A DNA stretch of 64,000 nucleotides from Spisula solida (lineage: Eukaryota; Mollusca; Bivalvia; Venerida; Mactridae). Location: assembly GCA_947247005.1 (NCBI GenBank), contig OX365955.1, positions 7,574,001-7,638,000 of the forward strand, in the 5' to 3' direction. Each line of letters starts with the position of its first letter. Positions within the stretch are counted from its first letter, which is position 1. Under the pieces are notes generated by a model that had not been told where the DNA came from, did not search any database, and saw only the letters and a list, made by a program, of their open reading frames with translations. Shown here piece by piece: positions 1,843-54,389 of this stretch. The position numbers were made by a program, and so were the translations under genes.

Positions 1843-4250
1843 TCACTTACACCACAAACAATCAGCACGCATCATGATGTTACATCCATTCACTTACACC
1901 ACAAACAATCAACACGCATCATGACGTTACATCCATTCACTTACAGCACAAACAATCAGCACGCATCATGACGTTACATCCATTCACTTACACCACAAAC
2001 AATCAGCACGCATCATGACGTTACATCCATTCACTTACACCACAAACAATCAGCACGCATCATGACGTTACATCCATTCACTTACACCACAAACAATCAG
2101 CACGCATCATGATGTTACATCCATTCACTTACACCACAAACAATCAGCACGCATCATAATGTTACATCCATTCACTTACACCACAAACAATCAGCACGCA
2201 TCATGACGTTACATCCATTCACTTACAGCACAAACAATCAGCACATATTATGACGTTACATCCATTCACTTACAGCACAAACAATCAGCACGCATCATGA
2301 CGTTACATCCATTCACTTACAGCACAAACAATCAGCACACATCATGACGTTACATTCACTGACACTACAAACAATCAGCACGCATCATGATGTTACATCC
2401 ATTCACTTACAGCACAAACAATCAGCACACATCATGACGTTACATCCATTCACTTACAGCACAAACAATCAGCACACATCATGACGTTACATCCATTCAC
2501 TTACACCACAAACAATCAGCACGCATCATGATGTTACATCCATTCACTTACACCACAAACAATCAGCACACATCGTGATGTTACATCCATTCACTTACAC
2601 CACAAACAATCAGCACACATCATGACGTTACATTCATTCACTTGCACCACAAACAATCAGCACGCATCATGATGTTACATCCATTCACTTACAGCACAAA
2701 CAATCAGCACACATCATGACGTTACATTCACTGACACTACAAACAATCAGCACGCATCATGATGTTACATCCATTCACTTACACCACAAACAATCAGCAC
2801 ACATCGTGACGTTACATCCATTCACTTACACCACAAACAATCAGCACACATCATGACGTTACATCCATTCACTTACACCCCAAACAATCACCACACATCA
2901 TGACGTTACATCCATTCACTTACACCACAAACAATCAGCACGCATCATGACGTTACATCCATTCACTTACACCACAAACAATCAGCACGCATCATGATGT
3001 TACATCCATTCACTTACACCACAAACAATCAGCACGCATCATGATGTTACATCCGTTCACTTACACCACAAACAATCAGCACGCATCATGACGTTACATC
3101 CATTCACTTACACCACAAACAATCAGCACGCATCATGACGTTACATCCATTCACTTACACCATAAAACAATCAGCACACATCGTGACGTTACATCCGTTC
3201 ACTTACACCACAAACAACCAGCACACATCATGACGTTATATCCGTTCACTTACACCACAAACAATCAGCACGCATCATGATGTTACATCCATTCACTTAC
3301 AGCACAAACAATCAGCACACATCATGACGTTACATCCATTCACGTAAACCACAAACAATCAGCACGCATCATGACGTTACATCCATTCACGTAAACCACA
3401 AACAATCAGCACGCATCATGATGTTACATCCATTCACTTACACCACAAACAATCAGCACGCATCATGATGTTACATCCGTTCACTTACACCCCAAACAAT
3501 CACCACACATCATGACGTTACATCCATTCACTTACACCACAAACAATCAGCACGCATCATGATGTTACATCCATTCACTTACACCACAAACAATCAGCAC
3601 ACATCATGACGTTACATCCATTCACTTACACCACAAACAATCAGCACACATCATGACGTTACATCCGTTCACTTACACCACAAACAACCAGCACACATCA
3701 TGACGTTACATCCGTTCACTTACAGCACAAACAATCAGCACACATCATGACGTTACATCCATTCACTTACACCACAAACAATCAGCACACATCATGACGT
3801 TACATCCGTTCACTTACACCACAAACAATCAGCACACATCATGACGTTACATCCGTTCACTTACAGCACAAACAATCAGCACACATCATGACGTTACATC
3901 CATTCACGTAAACCACAAACAATCAGCACGCATCATGACGTTACATCCATTCACTTACACCACAAACAATCAGCACACATCGTGACGTTACATCCATTCA
4001 CTTACAGCACAAACAATCAGCACACATCATGACGTTACATCCATTCACTTACAGCACAAACAATCAGCACACATCATGACGTTACATCCATTCACTTACA
4101 GCACAAACAATCAGCACACATCATGACGTTACATCCATTCACTTACACCACAAACAATCAGCACGCATCATAATGTTACATCCATTCACTTACAGCACAA
4201 ACAATCAACACACATCGTGACGTTACATCCATTCACTTACATCTCTAAAA
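1836..4250. repeat. 47-bp minisatellite, about 51 copies
   Basis: Head-to-tail copies of a 47-bp unit (plus strand begins ATGACGTTACATCCATTCAC, ends GCACGCATC). Variation is mostly C/T at the CpG (ACGTT or ATGTT), G/A at CACGC or CACAC, and C/G at ACACC or ACAGC, which suggests CpG decay plus unequal exchange. A few units are short (lacking CATTCACTTA, near 2350 and 2725). On the minus strand, which is the sense strand of the neighbouring gene, each unit contains GTAAGT, a perfect 5' splice-site core. Confidence 0.95.
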
Positions 4251-4275
4251 AATCACCACATGTAATAATAATATC

Positions 4276-7900: not shown

Positions 7901-10900
7901 TTTTAATATTAAGCATGCTTACCTTATAAAGTGAACTAAACCAACATCGAAACTGTACCATAGCTTGTTTATTGGTATAGGCCAGTCTGTTCCTGGACTA
8001 GAAAACCGGGTACGATATGATTGAAAATCCTCATGAATTTCTGAAATACAGAAAACTACATTAATTACATATAGACGTGTTCGACTAAGAAACATAGGCA
8101 ATTCTTCAAATTAGGTACTCTTCCACCAGTTAAGGTAAATTGAAATATGTTCATTCATAAAAAATATTTTTAGGTTAGAAACCACCAAATAAATTTGCTC
8201 TTTAGTTCAATGTAAAGTTACAATGGTAGGCCCCAATTTTTTACATCTTTTAGTCTATGGCCAGCAGAAAGACATATATCATTTTAAAGAAGTACCTTTG
8301 AGCTTCAAAATAATACAATAAAAAGGGGGGGGGGTGGTCGTGTGTCTTTTAAGAAAAAGTTTGTATGGTATACCTATTTTTACACATGTCCGGACTGATT
8401 CAATTCGGGTTTACCCTATTCTACTTTCACTTTTAAAGCCTCGTGTCATATCATTTTGTCCACTCGTTTAATAAAACTAGTATGAAATGAGCACTCATGC
8501 AAGATCCTCTATTTAAACAAATTGAATTTTAATTGATACAAATATTTTTATGAATGTACATATTTCAATAAAGCATAATAATTTTGGCAGAACATTATAT
8601 TGCAGACTTGAAAAATCAAATTGTTTACTGACACTGTTTCACTGTGAAGACTTGAATTTCAGCTATGCAAATTACCTTAAACTTGTGTTTGTCTACCATA
8701 GCTCCACGAACTTCGGAGTCACGTTGAACTATCATATTTCGTTAATCAATGCGGGACTTCATTCGACGGTGAAAAAAGTGACAGACCCAAATAAACGAGT
8801 TGTTTTTATGCGAACTACTAGTATACGATACCTTTAGACCACGACAGAGTAGAGAAAGCCACGCCTTATTGTTTGTCGGACATTGCTTGACGGGCATATA
8901 CGAGCTAAACCATTGGATTATCGGCACAAAATTAAGTATGCAATATTTTCAATGTCAGGTCATCCAAAATTATATCAGCATAATTTATGATTTTATATGA
9001 CTTTTGTACACATCTTTCGTCAGGTCTATTAACCAAAAAGAGATGTTTTAATAATTCTAACAGATAAAAAAGATTACCATGGTTACCGGGGCACGTCATG
9101 TAAGGAACAGTAGACGCTATAGGCTGGATCTCATTCATAAAATTATCACCAATCTGTGAAAGAGATAATGATATAATAATCAATCAGACAGGGAAAGCAG
9201 CACTCACCAGACAGGGAAAGCAGCACTCACCAGACAGGGAAGGCAGCACTCACCAGACAGGGAAGACAGCACTCACCAGACAGGGAAGGCAGCACTCACC
9301 AGACAGGGAAAGCAGCACTCACCAGAATGGGAAAGCAGCACTCACCAGACAGGGAAGGCAGCACTCACCAGACAGGCAAAGCAGCACTCACCAGACAGGG
9401 AAAGCAGCACTCACCAGAATGGGAAAGCAGCACTCACCAGAATGGGAAAGCAGCACTCACCAGACAGGGAAAGCAGCACTCACCAGAATGGGAAAGCAGC
9501 ACTCACCAGACAGGGAAAGCAGCACTCACCAGACAGGGAAAGCAGCACTCACCAGACAGGGAAGGCAGCACTCACCAGACAGGGAAGGCATCACTCACCA
9601 GACAGGGAAAGCAGCACTCACCAGAATGGGAAAGCAGCACTCACCAGAATGGGAAAGCAGCACTCACCAGACAGGGAAAGCAGCACTCACCAGACAGGGA
9701 AAGCAGCACTCACCAGACAGGGAAAGCAGCACTCACCAGACAGGGAAAGCAGCACTCACCAGAATGGGAAAGCAGCACTCACCAGAATGGGAAAGCAGCA
9801 CTCACCAGAATGGGAAAGCAGCACTCACCAGACAGGGAAAGCAGCACTCACCAGACAGGGAAAGCAGCACTCACCAGAATGGGAAAGCAGCACTCACCAG
9901 ACAGGGAAAGCAGCACTCACCAGAATGGGAAAGCAGCACTCACCAGACAGGGAAAGCAGCACTCACCAGACAGGGAAAGCAGCACTCACAAGACAGGGAA
10001 AGCAGCACTCACCAGACAGGGAAAGCAGCACTCACCAGAATGGGAAAGCAGCACTCACCAGACAGGGAAAGCAGCACTCACCAGACAGGGAAAGCAGCAC
10101 TCACCAGAATGGGAAAGCAGCACTCACCAGAATGGGAAAGCAGCATTCACCAGACAGGGAAAGCAGCACTCACCAGACAGGGAAAGCAGCACTCACCAGA
10201 CAGGGAAAGCAGCACTCACCAGACAGGGAAAGCAGCACTTACCAGACAGGGAAAGCAGCACTCACCAGAATGGGAAAGCAGCACTCACCAGACAGGGAAA
10301 GCAGCATTCAACAGGCAGGGAAAGCAGCATTCAACAGGCAGGGAAAGCAGCACTCACCAGACAGGGAAAGCAGCACTCACCAGACAGGGAAAGCAGCACT
10401 CACCAGAATGGGAAAGCAGCATTCAACAGACAGGGAAAGCAGCACTCACCAGACAGGGAAAGCAGCACTCACCAGACAGGGAAAGCAGCACTCACCAGAA
10501 TGGGAAAGCAGCATTCAACAGACAGGGAAAGCAGCACTCACCAGAAACAGGAGAGCACGACATACAGAACAGCATAAAAGGCACGACAACCCACTCCGAC
10601 AGCTGCCGCCTCAGTCAATCAGGTCCGGAGCAAGAGTCAGACGACACAAACGGACCGAAAGTACGACCACAACCCACATATCACAAGGACACCCTACAAA
10701 CAACACTCAACACATACATGCAGTGTAAGAAAGAAGCAGCCGTATGCTGGACATTGAAATGGTAGAAGGGCAGCTACAAAATGAACACAGTTTTATAAAA
10801 AGGCACAGGAACATTTTTTTGTAATTTTCTTTTTTTAACCAAACATTGAACAATACATACATGTATATAAAATAAGGCTGACTAGTATGGGACTAAACAT

Positions 10901-19900: not shown

Positions 19901-22900
19901 GTGAATGGTGGTTGCACTGAAAACAAAACATTACTTCAAGTGTTTGGCTGCCACAAGAGCAAAATATATCAAAAATAATAGTCAAAGGATCGTAGCTCAT
20001 CGGACCACAAGTAAACGGCATTTTGTAAATCTGCTGTGAACCCCAAACTCCAAGATAACTTCCAAAACTACCGCAATAAATTGATAATGTTATTATTAAG
20101 TTCTAATATGACAGGTGCATTCATGCACTAGTATAAATAATGTTAGATATACATGTATAATACATTAATAATGCCCGAATGAATTTTTCGAAACATGGTT
20201 GTTGCGAACAAGTGAAATGCGGACGTGCGTTCTTTCACGAAAGACATTAAGCGTTTCATTAGTTCCTTGGTCGTACCTCATTAGCGTCATTTGGACTCCG
20301 CAAGCAACGGAACATATGAAATATAACACATCCTATTGTTCCGCATCCCAAAACCGCGTCTGAGGGCGGACAGACGGGAAGACAGACGGTCAGAGGAAGG
20401 GTGATGCCAAAACATGGGAGACTAGCAATGATTATTATATTCTAATTTTCACCTCATCTTTACTATTTAATCGTATACTCAACCACATATTTAGCTATAA
20501 ATTGAACACTAATCACAAATGATTGAAAATCAAAACGACTGCTTCTCAGCATACGTATCTAAAGAGATTCTCTCAGTTATTCCTTAAACGAGGGTGATCA
20601 ACAAATACGCGGAAATTGCTCTGAAATCTTTACTACGTTACCAATATTGAAAAAATCGGTCGGATAATTGATTGACGTATTGCAAATACAATACTATAAA
20701 AAAAACATTAATATCAATAAAATATTTGGTCGAAAAACCTAGAAACCGTAACGTCACTATGGCTACACCGACACAACGTTATCGCGACGTCGTTACATAT
20801 AACAGTATACATACTAATTCTTGCACAATTCACAATTTATAATGCAGTGAATGGTTCTCAAAAAATAGCTGTACAACCAGATAGACTTCATAGACCTGTC
20901 AACCGAAAATCAATTTTTTCCTTTGCAACTTGCATGTAAATTTTACGAATTAGCTGCAGGAGATCATTAATAATGATGACGTAATTTGACGGTATTGACG
21001 TCGCAGAGCCCATTTGCATGTCGGCATTGTTTCACACGGCTACATATGATAGAATATACAAAACCTACACACGTGTATCGTGTACTAGTGACAAAAGTTA
21101 CATTGTGTATAATAACATGTATAGTTTTGAACCCATTACTCATCCTTGTGACAATAATACACATAACCTTGATACTGTTTTTGATGATAAAATTACCCAT
21201 GATATAAATGATTCTTATTTGAATAAGACGTCAATTCCTTCTGTTGATGGTTTTGTTTTTGACACCACAAATGTTGATGATTTTTATTCTGATATTGATA
21301 GTTTAAATAGGTCTTTACATGATGGAAATTTTGTTATGGACAGCTCTAATGTTGATATCTTTTATAATAAAATGAACTATGCTTTGCCTGTTTCCTCCTT
21401 GAATAGTTCTTCAAATTCTACTCCTGTTGATAATTCATTTAATGTTGACATGCTTAGCTCCAATTCTCAATCTTTACCTCTATATAATGCTCAAACACCA
21501 AGTACAGACAGCTGTATATCACCTCCCTCAGTCCCAAACCAACGATGGTTATCCCACAAAGGGTTACATATGGTACATCTAATTAGAATATAACCTACAT
21601 TATGAGCCAATGAAAACGCCGCATTTTCGCGGTTAAATGAAAATTTAATCATTTTAATTGTTTTCTTAACAGACTTGATGTCTTGCGTTGGCGCTAATTT
21701 CTATCGGCCAATCAGAATGCAGAATGTTATATTCTAAGTTAGTTAGAACATATTAAGTAAATTTTAATGACTAAAAAGGCCTCGCTTCGCTTCGCTCGCT
21801 CCGACCTTTTTAATCATTAAAATTTACTTAATATGTTCTAACTATAACATATTCATTATGTTTGTCCTAAACTTGACGAAATTTAGATTATAGTGTCTCA
21901 AAACTTAAATATTGACTGTTTATGCCTTTGTGGAACATTTTTAGATGAAAATGTTCTAGATTCCGAGCTTTCAATTCCTGGTTATACTCTATTTCGTAAA
22001 GATATACCATCTCATGTTGGGGGACTTATGATTTATGTTAAGGAGCATATTTGTTGTTTTTATAGAACTGATCTTGGGTCTCGTTCAGTTGAATCCCTAT
22101 GGTTAGAGTTTAAATTCACTTATTCTAAGACATTCCTTCTATGTTATGTTTATAGACCACCCTTATCTAGAGTGGAATGGCTAAATCATTTCACTGACAA
22201 CCTAGACAAATCATTCAATGAAACTAAGGAAACTATCATCATTGGAGATTTAAACTATTACTTACTTAAACAAGTATCACCTTCAAAATATTGGATGCAA
22301 ACAATGGAGCATATGAATTTCACTCAGCTTGTAAAATTTCCAACTAGAAGGACAAATAGTTCAGCAACTTTAATAGACCATGTTTTCAGTAACATTTCTA
22401 GTAACATTGTTGAAATAAATGTTCCACCATACGCATTAAGTGATCACTATCCAGTTGCTATTACAAGGAAATGTAATCACAACATACCTACAAAATCTTG
22501 CCATGATTATATTTTATACAGATCTGTCAAAAACTTCAATAAAACAGATTTTCTCAATGATCTAACCACACAAGCCTGGTTTACATTAAATAATGTTGAT
22601 GATCCTGATGAATGTGCTGATTTATTTATAGAACTGTTTGGGTCAGTTTTACAACAACATGTTCCTCTCAGACATAATAGGGTAAATAAATTAACTCAAT
22701 CAGACTGGTTCACCTCTGATATATTTCTTGCTATTAGACAAAGAAATTACTATCATAAAAACTAGGCAAGTCATGTCTAATTACAAATTGTTCAGATCAA
22801 AAGTAAAATCGCTTGTCCACAGGGCAAAATATAACCATTATAATGCCCAAATAAACTCAAATAAACACAATCCCAAACTGTTATGGAAAGGTCTCAGAGA

Positions 22901-25900
22901 GATGTCTGGTTTGGAAAGTACCAAAACTCAAACAGTTACACATTTATTTAACGACCATTTTTGTAACATTCATAAAACTGTTCCTGTTGATAAATCGAGT
23001 GTTTACAAACCTCCTGATTTATTAAAATCCTTGAATAAAGCTAGGTAAGTTAATTCTGATAAATTTACCATTCCACTATTGACTAGTGACTTTGTTGAAA
23101 CCCGATCAAAATCCCTTGATCCCACTAAATCGACAGGTACTGATAATATCAATGTCAAATACCTAAAAGTATTAGCTTCAATTATAGCACCAGCTTTAAC
23201 ATATGTACATGTATTTAATTGTAGTATAAAATCAAACAAATTCCCATTCGCCTTCAAAACAGCAATAGTAATTCCAATCTTCAAGAAGGGTGATAGACAT
23301 GATAAAAATAATTATAGACCTATTTCCATTTTACCAGTTGCTTTCTTAATACTTGAAAGACACGTTAGCAAGTGCTTAAAGTCATATCTTTCTGACATCA
23401 AACTTCTGTATGGCAGGCAATCAGGATTCCGTAAAATCACTCTTGTCAAACAGCTTTAATTAAAATGCTTGATGGCTGGATCTCAGCTGTAGATAATAAT
23501 GAAATAGTTGGAACATCGTTCATTGATTTAAGTAAAGCATTTGACTTGGTAAACCATGATATTTTATTACAGAAGCTATCACTATATGGTATGCATTGTT
23601 AAACATTAAATTGGTTTAAGTCCTATCTGAATTCAAGATCTCAAAACAACATTTATATCTGGCAAATATTCTTGTCCTGGCCATTAATTCTGAAAAATCC
23701 AAGTCTTTATTTATAACAAGTAAACGTAATAAACATCATATTGTTGGATCCAATCTCAGCATTCCTTTTCATGATAATTCAATTGAAGTTACTTCAACAG
23801 CAAAGTTATTAGGTATCACAGTTAATGATAGCCTATCATGGGCAGACCATATCAAGAATGTGATAAAGAAATGTAATTCCTATTTGTACCTGTTATCTAG
23901 AATTAAATATTTTCTTTCCATTGAAACTCGGAAGCGCTTCTATAACGCATATACTCTTCCAGATTTTGACGTTTGCTGTGTTGTAAGGGGAAATTGTACT
24001 AGCAGTCTTGAAGATAAACATATAAAATTTCAGAAAAGAGCAGCTAGGGTAATTCTTGATTGTGATTATTCAACTCCATCTACTATTCTATTTACAAAAC
24101 TCAAATGGATGACATTTCATGAACGCGTAATTTGTCAAAAAGATATTCAAATGTACAAAACTCTCAGAGGTGATGCACCAGACTATCTTAAATCTACATT
24201 TAGATTTACAGCAGATATCCATGCACGACTGTTATGTTCATCTTCTACATATCAATTATATAGACCAAAACCCAATTCCGAGTTATTTCGCCACATTTTT
24301 GCTTTCTCTGGTACCTCAATACGGAATTCTATTCCTCATTATATCAAAAATTCTTCTTCTACTCAACACTTTAAAACTTTATATCTACGCTAGGTGAAGC
24401 CGTCATATTTTGAACACCCCATGTTTCTGCTACTTAAGATATTAAATGACTGGCTTGTCATAACCACTATTTCAATATACATGTATATCCATATCTGTCT
24501 GCAGAATGACATGCAGTGTGTTTTATGTTACAATCTGTATTATGCTTTTAAAATGTCATTGTTTTAATTTACATGTTGTTATATGACATGCTGGCTCTTA
24601 TGATGTCCCTATATCTAATTAAGCTTTATAGTGATTAATTATAACTTTAATTGATTAAGTATTTAGATTTATATCTTCTTTTAATTGTAGATCCCATACA
24701 TATCGGTTTTCGCACATCTAGCTGTAACCGCAACTCGTCTATGAAATTCCCCCAATGATATATATTGTTTGTGTAATTTCGATAGGATATCTGCCGAATT
24801 CACCGTATATATAGTCTAATAGCAGCGTTTGTAGTTTTTGCATGTACACCTAGAATTTGTTTTAAGAATTTCAAATGAAAGTTTTCAATGTCTGGTGATT
24901 TATGGAAACCCCAAACTTCAGAACCATAGCATAATATTGGCATTATCATTGCATCAAACAATTTTAATTCTTCTGAGATATTCAGAGATATTACATCAAA
25001 TAATGACAAAAGTGAATACATTGCTCTATTTGCTTGATTGGAAAGAGAACGCTGTGCCTGGTAAAAATTACTATTAGACGACAACGTTACACCCAAATAA
25101 GTAAATGTTTTAACAACAGTAAGCTTGCGGCGGTTATAAAATATATCAACATTCTCCATTCTGGTTCCCTTTTTAAAAACTATAACTACTGTCTTGTTTA
25201 CATTTACTGTTATAGCACCATTCGTTACAATAACTATGTAATTCATTCAATAATAGCTGTAGGTCCTCCTTTGTATATTGCTGATGACGCGGTTCTATTT
25301 GCCCATACTCCAGAAGCGTTACAATCCTTACTCAATGATCTTCAGGACTACTGTAATACGTGGAAGTTAAACGTCAATACTAGCAAAACGAAAGTAATGA
25401 TTTTTGAAAACGGTCGCCATACAACATTTAACTTCACATTCAATAACACTACATTAGAGATGGTTAAAACCTTCAAATATCTCGGGCTATGTCTATTCAA
25501 GAATGGACAGATGGGTCGAACACAAAATAAACTTGCTCAAAAATCGTTATTCGCTCTGCATAATTTATTAATGGTTTTTAACCAAATCGAACTAGAAATA
25601 ATAAATAAATTGAAGTTATTCGATACTCTAGTAAGCTCCATCTTAAATTATGGCGCGGAAATTTTCTTTTACCTTGAATCATCGGATGTAGAGAAGGTAC
25701 ACTGTAAAGGAGAAGGTTCGCTAACTAGTAAAAATGGCCCCAAAATAATGAAAAATTAAAAATAGACGAAAAATGTTTTTTGTTATCTATTTTTAATAAC
25801 CAACCTTTATTCTTCATAAAAATGAATCTTTTCTTTAGAAAATCCGTTTTAAAGTCAGTAAAATTCCACTTGTAAGAACCCCTCTTTAGCTAAAAATGCC

Positions 25901-28900
25901 AAAATCTGCGTTTTTCGTGTAACACTTCTTTATTTGTTCATATCAGCGCACGTTTGTTCCACCTTCAAACTTGCTTAGCTTTCTGAGGAATTTCAAGTTG
26001 ATTGATAACATCACTGTTATTTTTTGGAACACGCGTTCGCTCATATCTTAAATTTAAAGTATATAAGCCGTAACGTGACATTTTTGACCAAAAAAGCAAC
26101 ATGACGTCACGCCAGCAGCAGACGACGAAGTTTCGCGCAACGGCAACGTCCTATTTGGCCGGAGCGCGATTATCGCAGTTTCTTTGTTTAACCCGCTCAT
26201 TCTGCTCAACAATACGACATGTATGGCCACTACTATTTCATTTCTTGGTTTACAATAATTTGTTTGGAATTCTTTATGTCCATCGGTCAGTCGAATTTGT
26301 TTTAAATGGAAAACGCCGTTGAACGCGTCTGTCGCATGAAAAGGTTGCAAAATAAAGCTGGTATACTATTATTTACATACACCATCATTTACCTACTTCA
26401 AAAATTCGCGACAGAAGCAGAGGTCCATTACGATCCATAGCAACGCATACATCCGACCCATAGCAACGTATACAGTAGCCGTTACGAGCGTAATGTACGT
26501 AACGAGTATAACGGGTGAACAACGCAACTATAAAACTCCGCGGCCTTACTGTCATTCCGATCAAACTGCATTGAAGCTTCTGATGTCGCCGACAATATGT
26601 ACATCACAGATTTGCCGACTGATTAGACGTTGCCGACTTACGTCGGCAATAAAAGGAAATAGAGGGAAAACTCACATCAAAGACAATTAGCCGAACTTGA
26701 TGCACATGAGAATTTTGACTGATCTATAATTAGCTCGCTTTGACATATATTGAATCTTGTTCATTTAGTATACTTCACGTAATAGACGTCGGTTGAATCG
26801 CTGTTATTGGAATAAGTCATCATTAAACATTATTTCATTGAGAAAAATAAATCGTATGAATAATGGATACATCCTTGAAGGTAGGGGCCTAATTAAAAAC
26901 GTCCCGTCTTCGCATCAAATGATTATTGGATTTATATGATTTGTGATTAAATCAAGAAGAGTCCCTGTAAAAACATACAGACAGGAACGTTTATAGTGTC
27001 TTTCTGATACATGACAAGGTCTAGCGCATTGTCTACATTCGATATAGCGGACTATTTGATAGGTGCTTTACGGGAAATCTAGGACAAAAAGTGTAAACCT
27101 TCAATTTGAACGAAAATAGATCCTCTGCATTATCAAAAATCACGATAATCAATTCAAGAGATCAAACTAGCGCTGATATTGTAGCCTTTAAAAGTCGGTT
27201 GACTATAGTCCAGATACTTGACACGACTCTCGACCTTCAACTAACATTATCTGATATACCGTCTATATTTATAATCCCGGTTGTATGTTTTCATAAGCGG
27301 AAAGTATCACGAAGACACAAATCTTAAGGACCGATATTGTACGATTTGCTAGCGGAAATTGATATATTCAACGCAAGAACCTCGTAATATATTTATGCAT
27401 AAAGGTCAGGATTATGTCAAATTCTCTGTGCTATACTAACTTGCAGAACGTACGATCCGATTTACAAAGAATTTAATGATGATCATTCTAGAAAATAGTA
27501 AGTGATAAATTATACGAGCATGATTACACGCGCAGAGAGCTATTCAGACTTATACAAACAATTTAACCGTTGTAATTATAAATAAAAGCGCAAAGTTACT
27601 ATGACGTGGCATATATAGTATGTGTCTATTCGGAGAATCGAGTCGAGTTTTCCGAAAATGATTTGACCTAGCCAGCTGAATATTTCACGTTACCTGATTG
27701 GTACTTTAATTTTGATACGTTTTATGATGGCAATTAGACATGTGTTTTGACGGTAATTAAATCATTTTACAGATTTTGAACATGTTTGATCTTTTGACGA
27801 TTCGTCCCGTAGGCAAAAATAAAAATGTCACATTGCAATATTCGTTTGCACTTTTAGAAGACAAAAGTAGTGTCCTTAACACGTTAATTTGAAGTAAATA
27901 GTCAAATGCATTATGTAGTTCGTCTACTGCTTCAAGGATAAAAAAGAGCAGATGAAGCATTATTTTCACGAGCGTAATTGGAACAACGGGTTCAAAATAA
28001 ATCAGTTGCTCACAATGTGAAATAACACCTGACTGTAAAATACAAATATTCTATTTAGTTAATGCTTAATTTAGGGTTTTCCTAAATATGTTTTTTAAAT
28101 AAAACATGGGAGTGAAATTCGAATTCTGAATTTTTGAAAACAAACTGAAAATAAGTGCATGTAAATAATAACTTGTGTATATAACGGCCAAAACACCTGT
28201 AGTTGCCTATAACAAGCATTGATGTCACGTGTAGGCCTACTATAAAGCTCTCAAGGGCAACTGATCTTCTTGTATGACGTTTTTCCAGGCCGTACAATTT
28301 GAAAATCAATTTGCATTCGCGAGTCAGGTGATGCTTGGTGAGCGGTTTAGTTTCATTTTTCTCGGTCAGTTGACTTGTGTGTTTGGGTATTTCTGTGCCG
28401 TGTGATTATGGTCTGTGTTAGTTCTGTGTTCGATGGTTTCAGTTCAGTGCTAGATCTAGCTTCCCCTTAGAATATAACCTACCTTTTTAGCCAGTGAAAA
28501 CGCCGATCTGTGCTGGTTAAATGCTACATTTAATTATGACATCATGAGTTGATCACATACTCTATCGGCCAATCAAATGCCGACTGTAACATTCTGAGTT
28601 ATTTTAATCATTAAAAGTTTGCTCTTACTAGTTGGGTTGGCGGGAATTTCTATTGGCCAGTCAAAATGACTAAAAAAGACTTCGCTTCGCTCGGTACGCT
28701 CACACCGTCCTTTTAAATCATAGACATTTGGTTTCAACTCGCCGTAAATTAATGATTTGACATAATCACTAATAGATCAGGGTATTGTAAATTTCATTAA
28801 TTTACGAAGAGTTGAAACCAAATAACAATCTTTTAATCATTAAAAACAAATAACTCACTATGTTCTATTACATAAAAATACTTCATGCTCCAACTGTCAT

Positions 28901-31284
28901 GTAATTACATGAACACGTTATGTTTCGCTGATGAATTTGAATTGCAACACGATCGTATTTATGTACAATTAGATACAGGTACCCATATACGTTCCTTTTG
29001 CTTTTGTTATCGAACTCAGATTTAACTACTTTTGCTCGTTCGTCAATTATTTTTAGAGGTTCAGTTTCTATAGCAACCACATCTTTAAATAGCAATATCA
29101 TACGAGTGTGTGTATGTCAATTATTATACTTCGCAAAAGGCTATAAGCCTCAACTTTGGAACTTCGTGAGTTATGCAACTATTCAGAAAATATCCGAAAT
29201 TTTAAGTATTTTGATTGCCATAGCAACCACAAAGTGTGTCCGATTATACATATCAAATAGTTCTGCCTTACATAATACTCAAGTTATGCCACGGTCTTGT
29301 TAAACCGGCTTTTCCCCCACTATTTTGTGTTTCCATAGCAACGCTTTCTTTAAGCAAAATCAAAATATATGGTGCATGCATATTCCCCTTATTACAACCT
29401 ATACATAAACTAAGTTCAGTAATCAAGACTTGCAAGTTGTTCGAATAGTGGCATGATTCCAGTTTTCTGTTGTTATTTTGTTCGTTTTTTACATGTTTCG
29501 TTGCCATAGCGACGTTTTCTTAGGCCTGACTGGTGAATGTATCAACATGCATTATTCCCATAATGTTCTTAAACAATATGCAACATTTTATGAGTGTCTA
29601 TGTTGAGTACTGTTTCCTTATTTCCTCGTTCATGACGCCAAAAAGATAAATAGAATGACGGATAAAATATTGTTGCCATGGCAACAGTAGATTATTTTTT
29701 TTGAATATAAGTATCATTTTCGATCATGATGCACTGTTACTTGTTACTAGTCAAATTATTATCAAATTATGTTACTGGGCCATTTTTACTAGTTAGTGAA
29801 CCTTGTCCTTTCTTCGAAAGATACTCCTTGTTAGAAAATCAACGAATTTAGACGCTATGTACTGAGACCTCGGTAGATATCCGATGAAAATACGTAGAAT
29901 GATAATCGCCATTAAATACTGGATCAAAATATTAAATCTAGACAATAATACATTATTGAAACGTACATACAATGTCCTAAAAGACGATGCCAATAATAAC
30001 ATCTCGTATTCAAATAAAAACTGGGCTTATCAAATAAAGAAATTATTAGAAGAACTAGGCTTTGCTCACTTATGGATAAATCAAGATATAGCTCATATTA
30101 ATTTCAATACAATAAAAATGCGCATATTAGATACTTATAAACAATCGTGGTACTTAAATATTAATAACTCGTCGCGTTTATCGACTTACTGCCTATACAA
30201 ACATGATTTCGAACTAGAGACATATTTGAAATGTATACGCAACGACAAATTTAAATACGCTTTAACCAAATTCAGATTTTCCGCACATAACTTAAACATA
30301 GAAACTGGACGACATTTGGGAATCGATAGGATTCATAGAAAATGCACAAAATGCAACATGAACACATTAGAAACAGAAATGCATTTCCTATTATTTTGTC
30401 CAAAATATACTAACCTTCGAAGATAAATATTTAGCCCTTATTATTGTCACTATCCAACAACTCAAAAATTTGAAAATTTATTACTATCAAAAAATTCCAA
30501 GCACATTAATAATTTAGCACGAGTTTTGTATTATGCTTTTAAAGAACGGGATTCAAATGAATAATATGAATAATCTACTATTAAATTCTCCATGTTAACG
30601 TTTAAATTAAACCAGATACTATTGACTATTTGTATAATTATCACAATATGCACTACATGATGTTGTATTTGTTTATTGGTTATAAATATGTATTTATTTT
30701 ATACCAAATAAAGATTATGTTATGTTATGTTATGTTATGTTATGTTATGTTATGTTATGTTATGTTATGTTATGTTATGTTATGTTATGTTATGTTATGT
30801 TATGTTATGTTATGTTATGTTATGTTATGTTATGTTATGTTATGTTATGTTATGTTATGTTATGTTATGTTATGTTATGTTATGTTATGTTATGTTATGT
30901 TATGTTATGTATATGCAAATAGAGCAGTGTCATCCGTCAACAATAATAAGAAATTTCTTAATTTTTCAAGAGTATACGTGTTCTGGGTTACGTTTTCTAA
31001 ATAGTCATGCATATCATTTAAAAATAATACAAACAATAACGGAGATATGTGTTCACCCTGTTTTACTCCCATTTTAATATACAAAATAATCTGATAGAGA
31101 TCCGTTGACCTTACGCATGACTTCACATTTTCGTACATACATTTCAAAATATTTATCATCTTAGATGAAACAATTTAAACCAAATCCCGTTCCGATATAC
31201 ACAATCAAAACATTTCTGAAAATCAATAAAAGAACAGTAGCTTTTTCTTCTCACTATTTAAGATTTATCAATAATTGAGGATAA

Positions 31285-31355
<71 letters not shown>

Positions 31356-34300
31356 CTACAGTACTTCGATCTTTTATAAAACCAACTGAGTCTTCGACAA
31401 AATAAAATTATCGTTTGCCCATTTTCTCAATCTTGTATCAAGAATAATTGAGAAGATTTTAGAAAATATGCTAGTCAGAGTTATCCCTCTATAATTATTA
31501 ACATCGGATTGATCTCCCTTTTTTGGTACACCGGCACAATAAATCCCTTTGTCCACGAATCAGGATAAATACAATTATCATACATAAAATTAATGGACAC
31601 GAAATCACGTGGCCTTTCACATATTATATGTACTATTATTATGAATGCAATGTGATTTCTCTCCTGGAGGTTAAAGGACAAGTTACTGCTAGTTAATAGA
31701 ATGAATAAATTTGTTTCCGTGAATAATTGATGACTATATATACATATTTCAATGTTTATTGATCCCACCCTATTTACATTTTTTTGGATTGATAATGTTC
31801 GTAATTAAAATAAAAAATAAATTTCTGTTTTAATAATAATTGCTGATCCCTTTGACCGTAGACTTGTTGTTACCATGGAAACCAGGTGATAATAGCGATG
31901 CTAAGACATGTGAATAAATACTATCAATGTAAAATATTGCCTGATAATTGACGCTCGTTCGTGATTCAGTATCAATTTACACTTCGTGTAATGTGTTAAT
32001 AAAGTCTCAGTCATATCTGGCTGCAAGATAAACTCATATAAATGTACAAGTCGTATTTCTTTGTAAACTATTGCAAAATCACAAATGTTCGCGAGGTTTA
32101 AATATCACGAATTGGTTATTCTAAAACTCGCGACGTTAAATGTTTGCGATTTTTAAACTTATAAAATCTGGTAGACAAAATCTTAAATGTACGTTTAAAT
32201 TAATAAAGGTTAAAATTAAATGCATGTTTATTAAACAGTATTTTTATAAGGCATTCGTTTTTGGACCTGTTACTTGGATCACCATGTATATACATGTACG
32301 TGTATCGATTAAATGAAGAAGTTTTATGTCAGAATAATGCTAGACCGTCTAAGTTCGAATAACAGGCTCTTAGACGGGCTCCATGGTCCAAAGATAAAAA
32401 AAATCCCATGGTCCTATGCTATCAAAATATTGTAGTTGATGTCGGAAAATGAGATACAGTAGAACTTCGATGCCTCGAACTACCTTCGGACCGGGATAAT
32501 AGTTCGAGCCATCTACCTGTTCGAGGCATCTAAGGTATACACGAGAACTATGTATTGTGCGTGTATAAGATCAAACTAATATCGATATGTGTGCCCATAA
32601 GAGTCGTGTTTATCACATTTCGTATGTGGAATGAAAAATTAATGGATTTTCATCAGTTGATGAAATATTATTCATAATAATAATAAAACATAATGATTTT
32701 GTCAAAATTGACCTAAGAAATCTTCTTCAAACTTTTCTCCCTTTCTTCCCGAAAGCTGACTTAATTATCCTCCTTTACTTTAATAAATGTTAAGAAATAG
32801 TTCACATCACTGAGGGCCCTATGGCATTATATGACCGAAGCGAAGCTGAGGTCCATATACACAACTTGGGCTGACTAGCCAGTCCATATAATGTCATTGG
32901 GCCCGAAGTGATGTGAACTATTTCTTATATTATACCGAACATTTAATATCGATAGTATAGGCCTACTTTTGTAACTAGATCTAGATACTAATAAGAAAAC
33001 ATTACATACATTTGGGTCTAAGTTGTTTATTTGCTAAAGAACTACATATCATTATAGGGAGATACGTCTATTTTGGTCTGTTTGCATATCCACCGAAATA
33101 ACCCAGAAATGTGAAAACCCGTGTTGCTATAATAAATCTATAGACAACTTTTAAGTTGTTTCAAGTATAAATCTGGAATTTCGACTTTTTGTTCATTTTT
33201 ATGCAAACTAATGCGTCTTTAGAGCTTATATTGAACTTTGTATCATAAACGCACATGAGTTGATCCATGCAATTACTGTCGACAGGACATAAATCTAATT
33301 TAAACAAAACAACGTTACGAAAAGAAAAGTTCGCACAACGTCACGCTCTATGGTAGCGTCACAGTATCCATGACGTCATGCAATAAACAAGACGTTTATT
33401 TCAGCTGCCGGTCAATATTATTTTGCCGGTCCATATTTTTTATAATATTGACCGGCTGTTGTATTTGGAACATGCAAGTCAGTCAGTCTATCGCTGGATA
33501 TATGGACCGATTAGAATAACAAAGAAACAGTTGAATGAAATTTGGGTGAGGTATAATAAATATGTTGTTCCTGAATGTTATTTAAGAAATAAAAATCTGT
33601 TCGCGTATTTTGTTCGTGACTAAAACACGGAGAGGAGTTCGGATGCGGAAAAATTAAATCACGAGTTTGCTCTATGCGTATATGGATTAATCCGCAGATC
33701 GTGTTAGGATTACGAACAAAACTTCCTTTAAGAATCCTTTACGAATTTTATTTAAGTTATAATTTCCTTGTATACAAACGTACATAAATTACCACTTCTT
33801 GTTAATCACACCTATTGTCGACTATACACCAACGAACAATAGATTTCAACAATCAATGGAAGGTGCGAAAAACTGTATTGTTCTACCCATGTACTGGTAA
33901 ATCATATCAAGGGTCCATCTATTCAGTTCTAGTGTTAGATATTATTTGAGTCATTTACTGTTTTTCAATATGAACAAAGAAGGGATTTTGTCGGGACCTT
34001 AAAACCAGTTCGAGGCATATAGGGTGTTCGAGGCAAGTACTGTTCGAGGCATCGAAGTTCTACTGTAGTTGGTACGAGTCTAGGTTCTTGGTTGATATTA
34101 TCATCACATATTCTCGACATTTAAAGCATCCATGGCGTTCTACTGTTGTCTCTTTAAACTGTGCTTTTTACTTTTACACGACGTTATGTTGAAAAACAGA
34201 ACAAGGTTTCAAACATACGGAATGCGCGATCTAAAATATTACTAGTAAACAGTATTTAAAATGTTAATAAATATCGGTCATTTCAATTAATTCAGTAAAG

Positions 34301-41439: not shown

Positions 41440-43910
41440 TAACATACATTTCCCTGTAAAAACAAAACCACTGAAGAAATCACCTAAGAAGTTTTCCTGG
41501 ACAGTTTCTTAACCAGTACTAACTTCTCTGTAAAAACAAACTTCCTTCATTGAAAAGACAACAGATGGACAACCGAGGACGGGGCTCGGTAGTCCATTTG
41601 TTGGGATCTTATCAACATAATTTATGTCATTTTATAAACTAGAACATGTATCACTTTAACTTCCACTGAAGAAATCACCTAGAAATTTTCCTGGACAGTT
41701 TCTTAACCAGTACTAACTTCCATATAAAAACAAACTTCATTCATTGAAAAGACAACAGATGGACAACCGAGGCTCGGTTGTCCATTTGTTGGGATCTTAT
41801 CAACATAATTAATGTCACTTTATAAACAAGAACATGTATCACTTTAACTTCCACAGAAGAAATCACCTAAGAAGTTTTCCTGGACAGTTTCTTAACCAGT
41901 ACTAACTTCTCTGTAAAAACAAACTTCCTTCATTGAAAAGACAACAGATGGACAACCGAGGACGGGGCTCGGTAGTCCATTTGTTGGGATCTTATCAACA
42001 TAATTTATGTCATTTTATAAACTAGAACATGTATCACTTTAACTTCCACTGAAGAAATCACCTAGAAGTTTTCCTGGACAGTTTCTTAACCAGTACTAAC
42101 TTCCATATAAAAACAAACTTCATTCATTGAAAAGACAACAGATGGACAACCGAGGCTCGGTTGTCCATTTGTTGGGATCTTATCAACATAATTAATGTCA
42201 CTTTATAAACAAGAACATGTATCACTTTAACTTCCACTGAAGAAATCACCTAGAAATTTTCCTGGACAGTTTCTTAACCAGTACTAACTTCCATATAAAA
42301 ACAAACTTCATTCATTGAAAAGACAACAGATGGACAACCGAGGCTCGGTTGTCCATTTGTTGGGATCTTATCAACATAATTAATGTCACTTTATAAACAA
42401 GAACATGTATCACTTTAACTTCCACAGAAGAAATCACCTAAGAAGTTTTCCTGGACAGTTTCTTAACCAGTACTAACTTCTCTGTAAAAACAAACTTCCT
42501 TCATTGAAAAGACAACAGATGGACAACCGAGGACGGGGCTCGGTAGTCCATTTGTTGGGATCTTATCAACATAATTTATGTCATTTTATAAACTAGAACA
42601 TGTATCACTTTAACTTCCACTGAAGAAATCACCTAGAAGTTTTCCTGGACAGTTTCTTAACCAGTACTAACTTCCATATAAAAACAAACTTCATTCATTG
42701 AAAAGACAACCGATGGACAACCGAGGCTCGGTTGTCCATTTGTTGGGATCTTATCAACATAATTAATGTCACTTTATAAACAAGAACATGTATCACTTTA
42801 ACTTCCACAGAAGAAATCACCTAAGAAGTTTTCCTGGACAGTTTCTTAACCAGTACTAACTTCTCTGTAAAAACAAACTTCCTTCATTGAAAAGACAACA
42901 GATGGACAACCGAGGCTCGGTTGTCCATTTGTTGGGATCTTATCAACATAATTAATGTCACTTTATAAACAAGAACATATGTATCACTTTAACTTCCACT
43001 GAAGAAATCACTTCAGAAGTTTTCCTGGACAGTTTCTTAACCAGTACTAACTTCCCTGTAAAAACAAACTTCATTCATTGAAAAGACAACAGATGGACAA
43101 CCGAGGACGGGGCTCGGTAGTCCATTTGTTGGGATCTTATCAACATAATTTATGTCATTTTATAAACTAGAACATGTATCACTTTAACTTCCACTGAAGA
43201 AATCACTTCAGAAGTTTTCCTGGACAGTTTCTTAACCAGTACTAACTTCTCTGTAAAAACAAACTTCCTTCATTGAAAAGACAACAGATGGACAACCGAG
43301 GCTCGGTTGTCCATTTGTTGGGATCTTATCAACATAATTAATGTCACTTTATAAACAAGAACATGTATCACTTTAACTTCCACTGAAGAAATCACCTAAG
43401 AAGTTTTCCTGGACAGTTTCTTAACCAGTACTAACTTCCCTGTAAAAACAAACTTCATTCATTGAAAAGACAACAGATGGACAACCGAGGCTCGGTTGTC
43501 CATTTGTTGGGATCTTATCAACATAATTAATGTCACTTTATAAACAAGAACATATGTATCACTTTAACTTCCACTGAAGAAATCACCTAAGAAGTTTTCC
43601 TGGACAGTTTCTTAACCAGTACTAACTTCTCTGTAAAAACAAACTTCCTTCATTGAAAAGACAACAGATGGACAACCGAGGCTCGGTTGTCCATTTGTTG
43701 GGATCTTATCAACATAATTAATGTCACTTTATAAACAAGAACATGTATCACTTTAACTTCCACTGAAGAAATCACCTAAGAAGTTTTCCTGGACAGTTTC
43801 TTAACCAGTACTAACTTCCCTGTAAAAACAAACTTCATTCATTGAAAAGACAACAGATGGACAACCGAGGACGGGGCTCGGTAGTCCATTTGTTGGGATC
43901 TTATCAACAA
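41440..43910. repeat. 190-bp satellite, about 13 copies, with a hairpin per unit
   Basis: Units of about 190-194 bp. Each holds CAACAGATGGACAACCGAG and its near-complement, a stem of about 19 pairs. Two forms exist: short (GAGGCTCGG, one-base spacer) and long (GAGGACGGGGCTCGG, with one stem mismatch). Left to right the order is L S L S S L S S L S S S L. Units also differ in CCTAAGAAG, CCTAGAAG and TTCAGAAG. Flanked on the right by a 53-bp array. Confidence 0.95.
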
Positions 43911-50079: not shown

Positions 50080-53000
50080 ACTAACTAACTACTACGGTCC
50101 TCGGTTTGATGCCTGGTCTTGCCTGCCAGGAAAACTGGTTTGATATCCTGCCTCGCCAAGCCGAATAAAAATGGTTTGATTCCCGGCCTGGTCATGACAA
50201 ATAAAACTATCTACAACGGTCCCTGGTTCGATCTCTGGCCTTGCCATGCCAAAGAAAACTAACTACTACGGTCCTTGGTTTGATGTCTGGATTTGCCTGC
50301 CAGGAAAACTGGTTTGATATCCTGCCTCGCCATGCCGAATAAAAATGGTTTGATTCCCGGCCTTGTCACGACAAACAAAACTATCTACAACGGTGCCTGG
50401 TTCGATCTTCGGCCTTGCCATGCTAAAGAAAACTAACTACTACGGTCCTTGGTTTGTTGCCTGGTCTTGCCTGCCAGGAAAACTGGTTTGATATCCTGCC
50501 TCGCCATGCCGAATAAAATTGGTTTGATTCCCAGCCTTGTCACGACAAACAAAACTATCTTCAACGGTGCCAGGTTCGATCTCCGGCCTTGCCATGCTAA
50601 AGAAAACTAACTACTACGGTCCTTGGTTTGATGCCTGGTCTTGCCTGCCAGGAAAACTGGTTTGATATCCTGCCTCACCATGCCGAATAAAAATGGTTTG
50701 ATTCCCAGCTTTGTCACGACAAACAAAACTATCTTCAACGGTGCCTGGTTCGATCTCCGGTCTTGCCATGCTAAAGAAAACTAACTACTACGATCCTTGG
50801 TTTGATGCCTGGTCTTGCTGCCAGGAAAACTGGTTTGATATCCTGCCTTGCCATGCTAAAGAAAACTAACTACTACGGTCCTTGGTTCATTATATTGTTA
50901 TTATATTATTATTAGTATTATTATTATTATTATATTATATTATATTATATTATATATTATTATATTATATTATATTATATTATATTATATGATATGATAT
51001 GATATATGATATTATATTATATTATACCGGTATTATATGATACTATATGATACTATATGATATTATTATATTATTATATTATATTATTATATTATTATTA
51101 TATTATTATGTTATTATTATTATATTATTATTATTATATTCCCAGCCTCACCATGTCAAAGAAAACTATCTACACCAGTCCTTGGTTTGATCCTCGGCCT
51201 TGTCACGACAAACAAAACTATCTACAACGGTGCCTGGTTGGATCTCAGGCCTTGCCATGCTAAAGAAAACTAACTACTACGGTCCTTGGTTTGATGCCTG
51301 GTCTTGCCTGCCAGGAAAACTGGTTTGATATCCTGCCTCGCCATGCCGAATAAAAATGGTTTGATTCCCAGCCTTGTCACGACAAACAAAACTATCTACA
51401 ACGGTGCCTGGTTCGATCTCCGGCCTTGCCATGCTAAAGAAAACTAACTACTACGGTCCTTGGTTTGATGCCTGGTCTTGCCTGCCAGGAAAACTGGTTT
51501 GATATCCTGCCTCGCCATGCCGAATAAAAATGGTTTGATTCCCAGCCTTGTCACGACAAACAAAACTATCTACAACGGTGCCTGGTTCGATCTCCGGCCT
51601 TGCCATGCTAAAGAAAACTAACTACTACCCTCCGTGGTTTGATGCCTGGTCTTGCCTGCCAGGAAAACTGGTTTGATATCCTGCCTCGCCATGCCGAATA
51701 AAAATGGTTTGATTCCCAGCCATGTCACGACAAACAAAACTATCTACAACGGTGCCTGGTTCGATCTCCGGCCTTGCCATGCTAAAGAAAACTAACTACT
51801 ATGGTCCTTGGTTTGATGCCTGGTCTTGCCTGCCAGGAAAACTGGTTTGATATCCTGCCTCACCATGCCGAATAAAAATGGTTTGATTCACGGCCTTGTC
51901 ACGACAAACAAAACTATCTACAACGGTGCCTGGTTCGATCTCCGGCCTTGCCATGCTAAAGAAAACTAACTACTACGGTCCTTGGTTTGATGCCTGGTCT
52001 TGCCTGCCAGGAAAACTGGTTTGATATCCTGCCTCGCCATGCCGAATAAAAATGGTTTGATTCCCAGCCTTGTCACGACAAACAAAACTATCTACAACGG
52101 TGCCTGGTTCGATCTCCGGCCTTGCCATGCTAAAGAAAACTAACTACTACGGTCCTTGGTTTGATGCCTGGTCTTGCCTGCCAGGAAAACTGGTTTGATA
52201 TCCTGCCTCGCCATGCCGAATAAAAATGGTTTGATTCCCGGCCTTGTCATGACAAACAAAACTATCTACAACGGTCCCTGGTTCGATCTCTGGCCTTGCC
52301 ATGCCAAAGAAAACTAACTACTACGGTCCTTGATTTGATGTCTGGTCTTGCCTGCCAGGAAAACTGGTTTGATATCCTGCCTTGCCATGCCGAATAAAAA
52401 TGGTTTGATTCCCGGCCTTGTCACGACAAACAAAACTATCTACAACGGTGCCTGGTTCGATCTCCGGCCTTGCCATGCTAAAGAAAACTAACTACTACGG
52501 TCCTTGGTTTGATGCCTGGTCTTGCCTGCCAGGAAAACTGGTTTGATATCCTGCCTCGCCATGCCGAATAAAAATGGTTTGATTCCCAGCCTTGTCACGA
52601 CAAACAAAACTATCTTCAACGGTGCCTGGTTCGATCTCCGGTCTTGCCATGCTAAAGAAAACTAACTACTACGGTCCTTGGTTTGATGCCTGGTCTTGCC
52701 TGCCAGGAAAACTGGTTTGATATCCTGCCTCGCCATGCCGAATAAAAATGGTTTGATTCCCAGCCTTGTCACGACAAACAAAACTATCTTCAACGGTGCC
52801 TGGTTCGATCTCCGGTCTTGCCATGCTAAAGAAAACTAACTACTACGGTCCTTGGTTTGATGCCTGGTCTTGCCTGCCAGGAAAACTGGTTTGATATCCT
52901 GCCTCGCCATGCCGAATAAAAATGGTTTGATTCCCGGCCTTGTCACGACAAACAAAACTATCTTCAACGGTGCCTGGTTCAATCTCCGGCCTTACCATGC

Positions 53001-54355
53001 TAAAGAAAACTAACTACTACGGTCCTTGGTTTGATGCCTGGTCTTGCCTGCCAGGAAAACTGGTTTGATATCCTGCCTCGCCATGCCGAATAAAAATGGT
53101 TTGATTCCCAGCCTTGTCACGACAAACAAAACTATCTTCAACGGTGCCTGGTTCGATCTCCGGTCTTGCCATGCTAAAGAAAACTAACTACTACGGTCCT
53201 TGGTTTGATGCCTGGTCTTGCCTGCCAGGAAAACTGGTTTGATATCCTGCCTCGCCATGCCGAATAAAAATGGTTTGATTCCCAGCCTTGTCACGACAAA
53301 CAAAACTATCTTCAACGGTGCCTGGTTCGATCTCCGGTCTTGCCATGCTAAAGAAAACTAACTACTACGGTCCTTGGTTTGATGCCTGGTCTTGCCTGCC
53401 AGGAAAACTGGTTTGATATCCTGCCTCGCCATGCCGAATAAAAATGGTTTGATTCCCGGCCTTGTCACGACAAACAAAACTATCTTCAACGGTGCCTGGT
53501 TCAATCTCCGGCCTTACCATGCTAAAGAAAACTAACTACTACGGTCCTTGGTTTGATGCCTGGTCTTGCCTGCCAGGAAAACTGGTTTGATATCCTGCCT
53601 CGCCATGCCGAATAAAAATGGTTTGATTCCCAGCCTTGTCACGACAAACAAAACTATCTTCAACGGTGCCTGGTTCGATCTCCGGCCTTGCCATGCTAAA
53701 GAAAACTAACTACTACCCTCCTTGGTTTGATGCCTGGTCTTGCCTGCCAGGAAAACTGGTTTGATATCCTGCCTCACCATGCCGAATAAAAATGGTTTGA
53801 TTCCCAGCCTTGTCACGACAAACAAAACTATCTTCAACGGTGCCTGGTTCGATCTCCGGTCTTGCCATGCTAAAGAAAACTAACTACTACGGTCCTTGGT
53901 TTGATGCCTGGTCTTGCCTGCCAGGAAAACTGGTTTGATATCCTGCCTCGCCATGCCGAATAAAAATGGTTTGATTACCAGCCTTGTCACGACAAACAAA
54001 ACTATCTACAACGGTGCCTGGTTCGATCTCCGGCCTTGCCATGCTAAAGAAAACTAACTACTACGGTCCTTGGTTTGATGCCTGGTCTTGCCTGCCAGGA
54101 AAACTGGTTTGATATCCTGCCTCGCCATGCCGAATAAAAATGGTTTGATTCCCGGCCTTGTCACGACAAACAAAACTATCTACAACGGTGCCAGGTTCGA
54201 TCTCCGGCCTTGCCATGCTAAAGAAAACTAACTACTACGGTCCTTGGTTTGATGCCTGGTCTTGCCTGCCAGGAAAACTGGTTTGATATCCAGCCTCGCC
54301 ATGCCGAAATAAATGGTTTGCTTCCTGGCCTAGTCACGACAAAGAAAACTATCTA
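50080..54355. repeat. 174-bp higher-order tandem array, about 23 copies
   Basis: Each 174-bp unit is built of four diverged sub-repeats of about 35-50 bases on the pattern GGTTYGATNCC...CCTTGCCATG...AAAACT. The subunits begin GGTTTGATGCCTGG, GGTTTGATATCCTG, GGTTTGATTCCCAG and GGTTCGATCTCCGG, which resemble a tRNA T-arm (Pol III B-box GGTTCGANTCC). Just left, at about 50052, GGTTCGAATCCCGGGCC is a perfect B-box and may be the seed. Broken at 50888-51145 by an AT microsatellite. Confidence 0.95.
50888..51145. repeat. TAT/TTA-rich microsatellite inside the 174-bp array
   Basis: Mixed (TTA)n, (TATAT)n and (ATGAT)n runs replacing part of one array unit; it then returns to array sequence at CCCAGCCTCACCATG. 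Confidence 0.9.
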
Positions 54356-54389
54356 CAAACAATTAATAAAAAAAAAAGCAATAACTCCC

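What the first reader, a model, noticed from the sequence alone, without database searches (positions are those of the whole stretch)
24800..31770. Insertion nest resolved to the base: LINE in LINE, DNA element in that, foldback in that
A minus-strand LINE reads up to TDDTALFAYT at 30908 and resumes at 25271 with KEDLQLLL. Removing 25279-30914 joins the halves in frame (LFAYT/KEDLQ). The removed piece is a 5'-truncated plus-strand LINE with a (TTATG)n tail, bracketed by TGTATAT at 25272-25278 and 30908-30914. That LINE is itself split at VEKVHCK/FLRKILL by a 4.1-kb element with 35-base inverted ends, and a foldback MITE sits inside that. The order of four events can be read directly.
Basis: seen in the sequence. 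Interest (0 to 1): 0.8.

Follow-up and report, generated by a model that had tools for sequence, protein, structure and literature searches.

The report
Three-deep nest of jumping genes
An old jumping gene was broken by a younger one, which was itself broken by a third element; that order can be checked against intact relatives in the same genome, but the supposed fourth insertion is simply part of the third element, and the whole is ordinary genome history.

Summary
The core of the finding holds. Outer LINE A (minus strand, 31593-30915 and 25278-24763) is interrupted by a 5'-truncated LINE B (plus, from 25279, (TTATG)n tail), and LINE B by a 4,100-bp inverted-repeat element (25709-29808). Relatives in the same genome give the empty sites: of 17 other LINE A places none holds LINE B and 13 align across the site without a gap; in 26 of 29 other LINE B places one alignment runs through the element's insertion point. 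Two claims fail. The foldback is not a fourth event: it sits at the same place in 24 of 24 copies of the 4.1-kb element examined, so it came with the element. And that element makes no target duplication (0 nt in 21 of 21 flank pairs) and lies between AAA and TTT (both in 18 of 21), the signature of Spy (PHIS) transposons; this copy has no recognisable transposase. So three steps can be ordered, A, B, Spy-like element; private mutation loads agree (2.76%, 0.97%; element 0.37% from its nearest copy). LINE A is also cut at both ends, its left end abutting another truncated LINE. New members of known kinds; ordinary.

The parts
30915..31593 (-). Outer LINE A, upstream part (RT up to TDDTALFAYT); 5' side cut at 31593
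   Evidence: Matches own-genome copies, mostly at about 90-94%, starting at 31593; relatives continue upstream of that point
24763..25278 (-). Outer LINE A, downstream part (KEDLQLLL...GEFGRYP); 3' side lost beyond 24763
   Evidence: Relatives run contiguously from the upstream part into this part; L004 continues past 24763
25272..25278 (+). Left target-site duplication TGTATAT of the LINE B insertion (5 of 7 bases certain)
   Evidence: single copy in relatives, e.g. L018
30908..30914 (+). Right target-site duplication TGTATAT
25279..25708 (+). Inner LINE B, upstream part, 5'-truncated at the FADD motif of RT
   Evidence: Pfam PF00078; genome copies up to 99% identical that extend further upstream (16 printed)
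29809..30714 (+). Inner LINE B, downstream part (C-terminal region and 3' end)
   Evidence: In 26 of 29 other LINE B places one alignment runs through the 25708/29809 point
30715..30907 (+). (TTATG)n tail of LINE B, about 40 units counting the overlap into the TSD
   Evidence: the same kind of tail starts at the same point in 14 of 14 copies printed
25709..29808 (+). 4,100-bp non-autonomous Spy-like DNA element inserted in AAA|TTT without TSD
25709..25740 (+). Left terminal inverted repeat of the 4.1-kb element
29777..29808 (-). Right terminal inverted repeat of the 4.1-kb element
28713..28836 (.). Foldback (43-nt arms, 84%), a standing part of the 4.1-kb family, not a later insertion into this copy
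31289..31350 (.). (AT)31 microsatellite inside the RT frame of LINE A
   Evidence: only a short GTATATTTG at this place in the 4 relatives printed, one with a base change

Best explanation
This is a three-step nest of transposable elements in an animal genome. LINE A, an old non-LTR retrotransposon copy, received a 5'-truncated copy of a younger, related LINE B in the opposite orientation by target-primed reverse transcription (TSD of 5-7 bp, (TTATG)n tail, 1-nt overlap at the 5' junction). A 4,100-bp non-autonomous Spy-like DNA transposon then went by cut-and-paste into an AAATTT motif of that LINE B copy without duplicating the target. The foldback is part of that element and arrived with it. 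Shown: boundaries, empty sites, AAA/TTT flanks without TSD, foldback in all copies examined, order of mutation loads. Inferred: the enzymatic routes, and mobilisation by a Spy transposase from another locus.
For: LINE A: of 17 other places none holds LINE B, 16 have no insert at the site, 13 are gap-free over it; intact reading in L004. LINE B: an alignment runs through the point in 26 of 29 other places, intact reading in L032, and none of L032-L060 holds the element's end sequence at up to 3 substitutions. 5' truncation and overlap. Element: left flank AAA in 20 of 20 copies; of 21 flank pairs (window included) AAA in 20, TTT in 18, both in 18, TSD 0 in 21; L081 full length, 99.63%, no gaps, flanked by AAA and TTT; 146 exact end matches in the genome, 0 for the reversed control. 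Private differences: LINE A 30 of 1085, LINE B 13 of 1335; element against L081 15 of 4100. Spy traits: passages of PMC4482050 and PMC11304231.
Against: No transposase was found in this copy (one zinc-ribbon match below its cut-off) or among the ORFs of a 5.36-kb and a 6.27-kb relative (no Pfam scan). No PF13359 match on contigs C1-C13 fell inside the listed end pairs (compared by eye; both lists are capped), so the link to a Spy transposase is indirect. 3 of 21 flank pairs deviate from AAA/TTT. The TSD of LINE B is short and partly merges with the tail. The private load of the window copies lies inside the range of their relatives (LINE A 0.37-7.57%, LINE B 0-1.13%), so it supports the order but does not prove it. 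The only Pfam scan of a LINE A piece gave no family. One assembly; no reads, other haplotype or species.
Confidence: 0.92

Rival explanations
1. Four readable events: the foldback is a MITE that inserted into the 4.1-kb element after it had landed in LINE B.
For: A clear foldback with 43-nt arms lies inside the element.
Against: 24 of 24 copies of the element examined at other loci hold it at the same place (20, L081 and L082, L143 and L144). These copies were picked for length (about 4.1 kb or more), so short derivatives were not looked at.
Confidence: 0.02
2. The 4.1-kb element is not Spy-like but another TIR element (ISL2EU, PIF-Harbinger or a further group) whose target duplication is hidden.
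For: No transposase in the copies read; PF13359-type DDE genes are common in this genome (150 matches).
Against: TSD length 0 in 21 of 21 flank pairs, with AAA and TTT both present in 18 of 21; the other PHIS groups make TWA, AT, ANT, CWG or TNA duplications (PMC4482050 passages).
Confidence: 0.07
3. The opposite orientation and similar breakpoints of LINE A and LINE B come from inversion or inverted-repeat recombination between two LINEs, not from insertion.
For: LINE B starts at its FADD motif and LINE A breaks about ten codons further on in its own frame, so short inverted homology lies near both ends of the inserted piece.
Against: LINE B has a 3' tail and a flanking duplication, and the LINE A site is intact in 13 of 17 relatives with one copy of the target.
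Confidence: 0.03
4. Assembly artefact.
For: Only one assembly was seen; repeats are dense.
Against: The junctions obey element rules at base level (TSD, tail, AAA|TTT), and LINE A, LINE B and the element each carry changes of their own.
Confidence: 0.02

Closest known systems
Spy group of PHIS (PIF-Harbinger/ISL2EU/Spy) DNA transposons
   Same: Terminal inverted repeats, insertion within AAATTT, no target duplication (PMC4482050 and PMC11304231, passages). Active members include cvSpy of the oyster Crassostrea virginica.
   Different: This copy has no recognisable transposase ORF; its letters were not compared with any published Spy; it carries an internal foldback.
Endonuclease-type non-LTR retrotransposons (LINEs)
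   Same: LINE B: reverse transcriptase PF00078, relatives with PF03372 endonuclease, 5' truncation, short-repeat tail, TSD. Diverse LINEs in bivalves are documented (PMC10294476, passages).
   Different: Clade not assigned; the (TTATG)n tail was not matched to a named family; LINE A is filed as a LINE by its similarity to LINE B (39.5%) and by the frame of L004, not by a domain match.
Foldback / MITE
   Same: Inverted arms with a short loop.
   Different: Fixed position in every copy of the host element examined; independent mobility was not tested.

Membership tests
Spy DNA transposon | Insertion within AAATTT (AAA on the left, TTT on the right) | tested here: met
   Window AAA|...|TTT; AAA in 20 of 20; both sides in 18 of 21 pairs
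Spy DNA transposon | No target-site duplication | tested here: met
   0 nt in 21 of 21; paralogous empty site CACTGTAAATTTCTTCG in LINE B copies
Spy DNA transposon | Terminal inverted repeats | tested here: met
   35-nt arms including 3 nt of target, 94%; 75 forward and 71 reverse end matches in the genome
Spy DNA transposon | Single ORF for a DDE transposase of about 700 aa (autonomous members) | tested here: not met
   Longest stop-to-stop ORF 120 aa; no family above its cut-off in the ten longest ORFs. At most a non-autonomous member
Spy DNA transposon | Partner transposase with the same ends in the genome | tested here: inconclusive
   No PF13359 match inside the listed end pairs on C1-C13 (by eye); 46 of 146 end places were not listed, 150 of 317 family candidates were scored, and this Pfam model may miss Spy
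Spy DNA transposon | Transposase in the Spy clade of a PHIS tree | not testable with these tools
   No transposase found to place
Non-LTR retrotransposon (LINE B) | Reverse transcriptase domain | tested here: met
   PF00078, 32.9 bits against cut-off 29.6
Non-LTR retrotransposon (LINE B) | 3' tail, TSD and 5' truncation | tested here: met
   the TSD is short
Non-LTR retrotransposon (LINE B) | Clade by RT phylogeny | not tested
MITE (foldback as an insertion into this element) | Empty site in other copies of the host element | tested here: not met
   24 of 24 copies filled
MITE (foldback as an insertion into this element) | Copies outside the 4.1-kb element | not tested
   The own-genome search did not complete

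The most novel reading that the evidence does not exclude
A recently mobile, transposase-less Spy family (at least 22 copies of about 4.1 kb: 20 end pairs, L081 and the window) amplifies in this animal genome, every examined copy keeping an internal foldback, which might be needed for transposition or transposase binding rather than being a passenger.
Probability: 0.12. Interest if true: 0.4.

Novelty: new member of a known kind. Interest (0 to 1): 0.2.

Why it matters
It is a clean worked example, with internal controls, of reading transposon chronology from one locus, and a warning: nesting inside a cut-and-paste element dates nothing until other copies of that element are checked. It also documents a non-autonomous family with AAATTT insertion and no TSD, which an annotation that demands TSDs would miss (inference; the bivalve study PMC10294476 exempts Spy from its TSD requirement, passage).

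Tried and rejected
Rejected: foldback as a fourth event. Rejected: twin priming or inversion for LINE A/LINE B (tail, TSD and empty site fit an insertion). Looked for the missing 3' part of LINE A in the window with relatives as queries: not found (other repeats in the flanks of L010, L012, L013 and L027, and one short piece of L005, did match). Looked for the missing 3' part of the neighbouring LINE: no convincing match. Looked for a transposase in 5.36- and 6.27-kb relatives: none among ORFs of 110 aa or more, judged from the listing without a Pfam scan. Paper searches (listings only) gave nothing on this nest. The original Spy paper is not held and is known to me only by recall. The LINE clade was left open; 'CR1-like' for the neighbouring LINE is a label from memory.

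Rows left out: of 29 other LINE A loci cut, 12 are second pieces of the same places, leaving 17. The private-difference counts used 9 of these 17 and 13 of 29 other LINE B copies, the long clean ones. The 20 flank pairs and 20 middle regions were chosen from the 100 of 146 listed end places for pairs 4.0-4.2 kb apart; two of the pairs also occur among the 20 left flanks, and two of those 20 are a local duplication with identical flanks.

Full report
What was checked. Junction letters, TSDs, tails and reading frames were read in the window.

LINE A and the LINE B insertion. LINE A matches genome copies from 31593 down to 30908 and from 25277 on to 24763. One search lists 61 matches (40 of 584 candidates scored); 29 loci besides the window's own were cut, which are 17 distinct places. 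An 80-nt query across the joined site aligns without a gap in 13 of 17; two have 10- and 14-nt deletions there (L027, L028); one crosses the site but stops 16 nt after it (L030); one (L014) has its own, different insert. L018 has GCATATACAAAGG with one TATACA. LINE A is filed as a LINE through its similarity to LINE B (39.5% over 129 columns, E 9e-22) and the L004 frame; the one Pfam scan of a LINE A piece gave no family.

LINE B. Its 430-nt upstream part has genome copies up to 99% identical. Sixteen printed copies extend further upstream and read ...TTATT|TGCTGATG (one with an A for the G) where the window reads ...TATAT|TGCTGATG, so the window copy is 5'-truncated, with a 1-nt overlap at 25278. 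The end CCAAATAAAGA followed by TTATG units is shared by 14 of 14 copies printed (one has TTATC as its first unit); the window tail is longer than 12 of these, L036 and L037 being long too. The TSD TGTATAT is safe only for TATAT, because TG could be tail. L032 has an open frame of at least 894 aa; relatives with PF00078, some with PF03372, exist in public data. Five of the 120 listed relatives carry names of bacteria (Candidatus Thiodiazotropha, Sedimenticola) that I recall as clam symbionts, a weak hint that the host is a bivalve.

The 4.1-kb element. It separates VEKVHCK from FLRKILL. In 26 of 29 other LINE B places one alignment runs through that point; the other three (L050-L052) are deleted or broken there. 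None of L002-L060 except the window's own L031 holds the element's end at up to 3 substitutions. Its ends were fixed by comparison: 20 of 20 copies start at GGA and are preceded by AAA. For 20 end pairs plus the window, the left flank is AAA in 20 of 21, the right flank TTT in 18 of 21, both in 18 of 21, and the direct-repeat length is 0 in 21 of 21. A preference for AAATTT and no TSD set Spy elements apart (PMC4482050, passages; found for cgSpy in human cells, PMC11304231, passages). The copy has no stop-to-stop ORF above 120 aa, and the ten longest ORFs gave no Pfam match above its cut-off (one zinc-ribbon match below it), so it is non-autonomous. There are 75 forward and 71 reverse exact end matches in the genome and none for the reversed control. 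Of 150 PF13359 matches (317 candidates), none on C1-C13 falls inside a listed end pair; C14-C20 could not be compared because their ends were not listed (by eye).

The foldback. L081 (C17, 99.63% over 4,100 nt, no gaps) contains it, as does the more diverged L082. So do 20 of 20 middle regions and the longer L143 and L144. It is thus a standing part of the family. Whether it was once a separate MITE was not tested.

Order and relative age. Differences private to the window copy: LINE A 30 of 1085 (2.76%), LINE B 13 of 1335 (0.97%); the element differs from its nearest copy at 15 of 4100 (0.37% for both branches together). These agree with A before B before element. The same count varies among relatives (LINE A 0.37-7.57%, LINE B 0-1.13%), so it supports the order and is not a clock.

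Ends of LINE A. Relatives continue upstream of 31593 with shared sequence, and L004 continues past 24763 with a frame that resembles the C-terminal part of LINE B (by eye). At 24763/24764 LINE A abuts a plus-strand, CR1-like LINE (about 20.3-20.6 to 24.76 kb; endonuclease match at 21887-22765; many copies) whose relatives also go on past that point by about 180 nt. Both are cut at one junction, which suggests a deletion or end-joining event of unknown date relative to the nest. The missing pieces were not found in the window.

Limits. One assembly, no reads, no other individuals. The genome search scores a limited number of candidates, so copy numbers are lower bounds.

Noticed in passing
L014, oriented 1865-2769 (G000:C11:45540003-45543361): Another LINE A copy has an independent roughly 0.9-kb element with inverted ends (CGAGGGG...) and apparent TSD TACA within a few bases of the same target as LINE B.
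   Followed up: partly
LINE A target TATACA; L027, L028, L030, L014: Of 13 insertions, deletions (6 nt or more) or breaks seen in 16 LINE A copies against L004 over 1,138 nt, 4 start within 18 nt downstream of the LINE B target. Noticed after the fact and with uneven coverage, so not a test.
   Followed up: partly
window 24763-24764: Junction of LINE A (3' part missing) with a CR1-like LINE (last about 180 nt missing), overlapping by 1-2 nt.
   Followed up: partly
window 31289-31350: (AT)31 inside the RT frame of LINE A; only a short AT-rich seed in the 4 relatives printed.
   Followed up: partly
window 28467-28729 and 21583-21825: A stretch of the 4.1-kb element is similar (77-84% in three pieces) to the region after the first ORF of the CR1-like LINE.
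   Followed up: no
G000:C13:46060402-46062672: Two left ends of the element 1.9 kb apart with identical flanks, probably a local tandem duplication.
   Followed up: no
L143, L144: 5.36- and 6.27-kb relatives of the element are the 4.1-kb core with extra inserted DNA and no ORF that looks like a transposase.
   Followed up: partly
window 9185-10545: A 23-bp tandem array (59 copies) leaves three plus-strand frames open over 465-553 codons, spelling QHSPDRESSTHQTGKAALTR-like repeats.
   Followed up: no
window 1827-4260, 41468-43909, 50083-54358, 63448-64000: Large tandem arrays with units of 47, 189/383, 174/348 and 42 bp.
   Followed up: no
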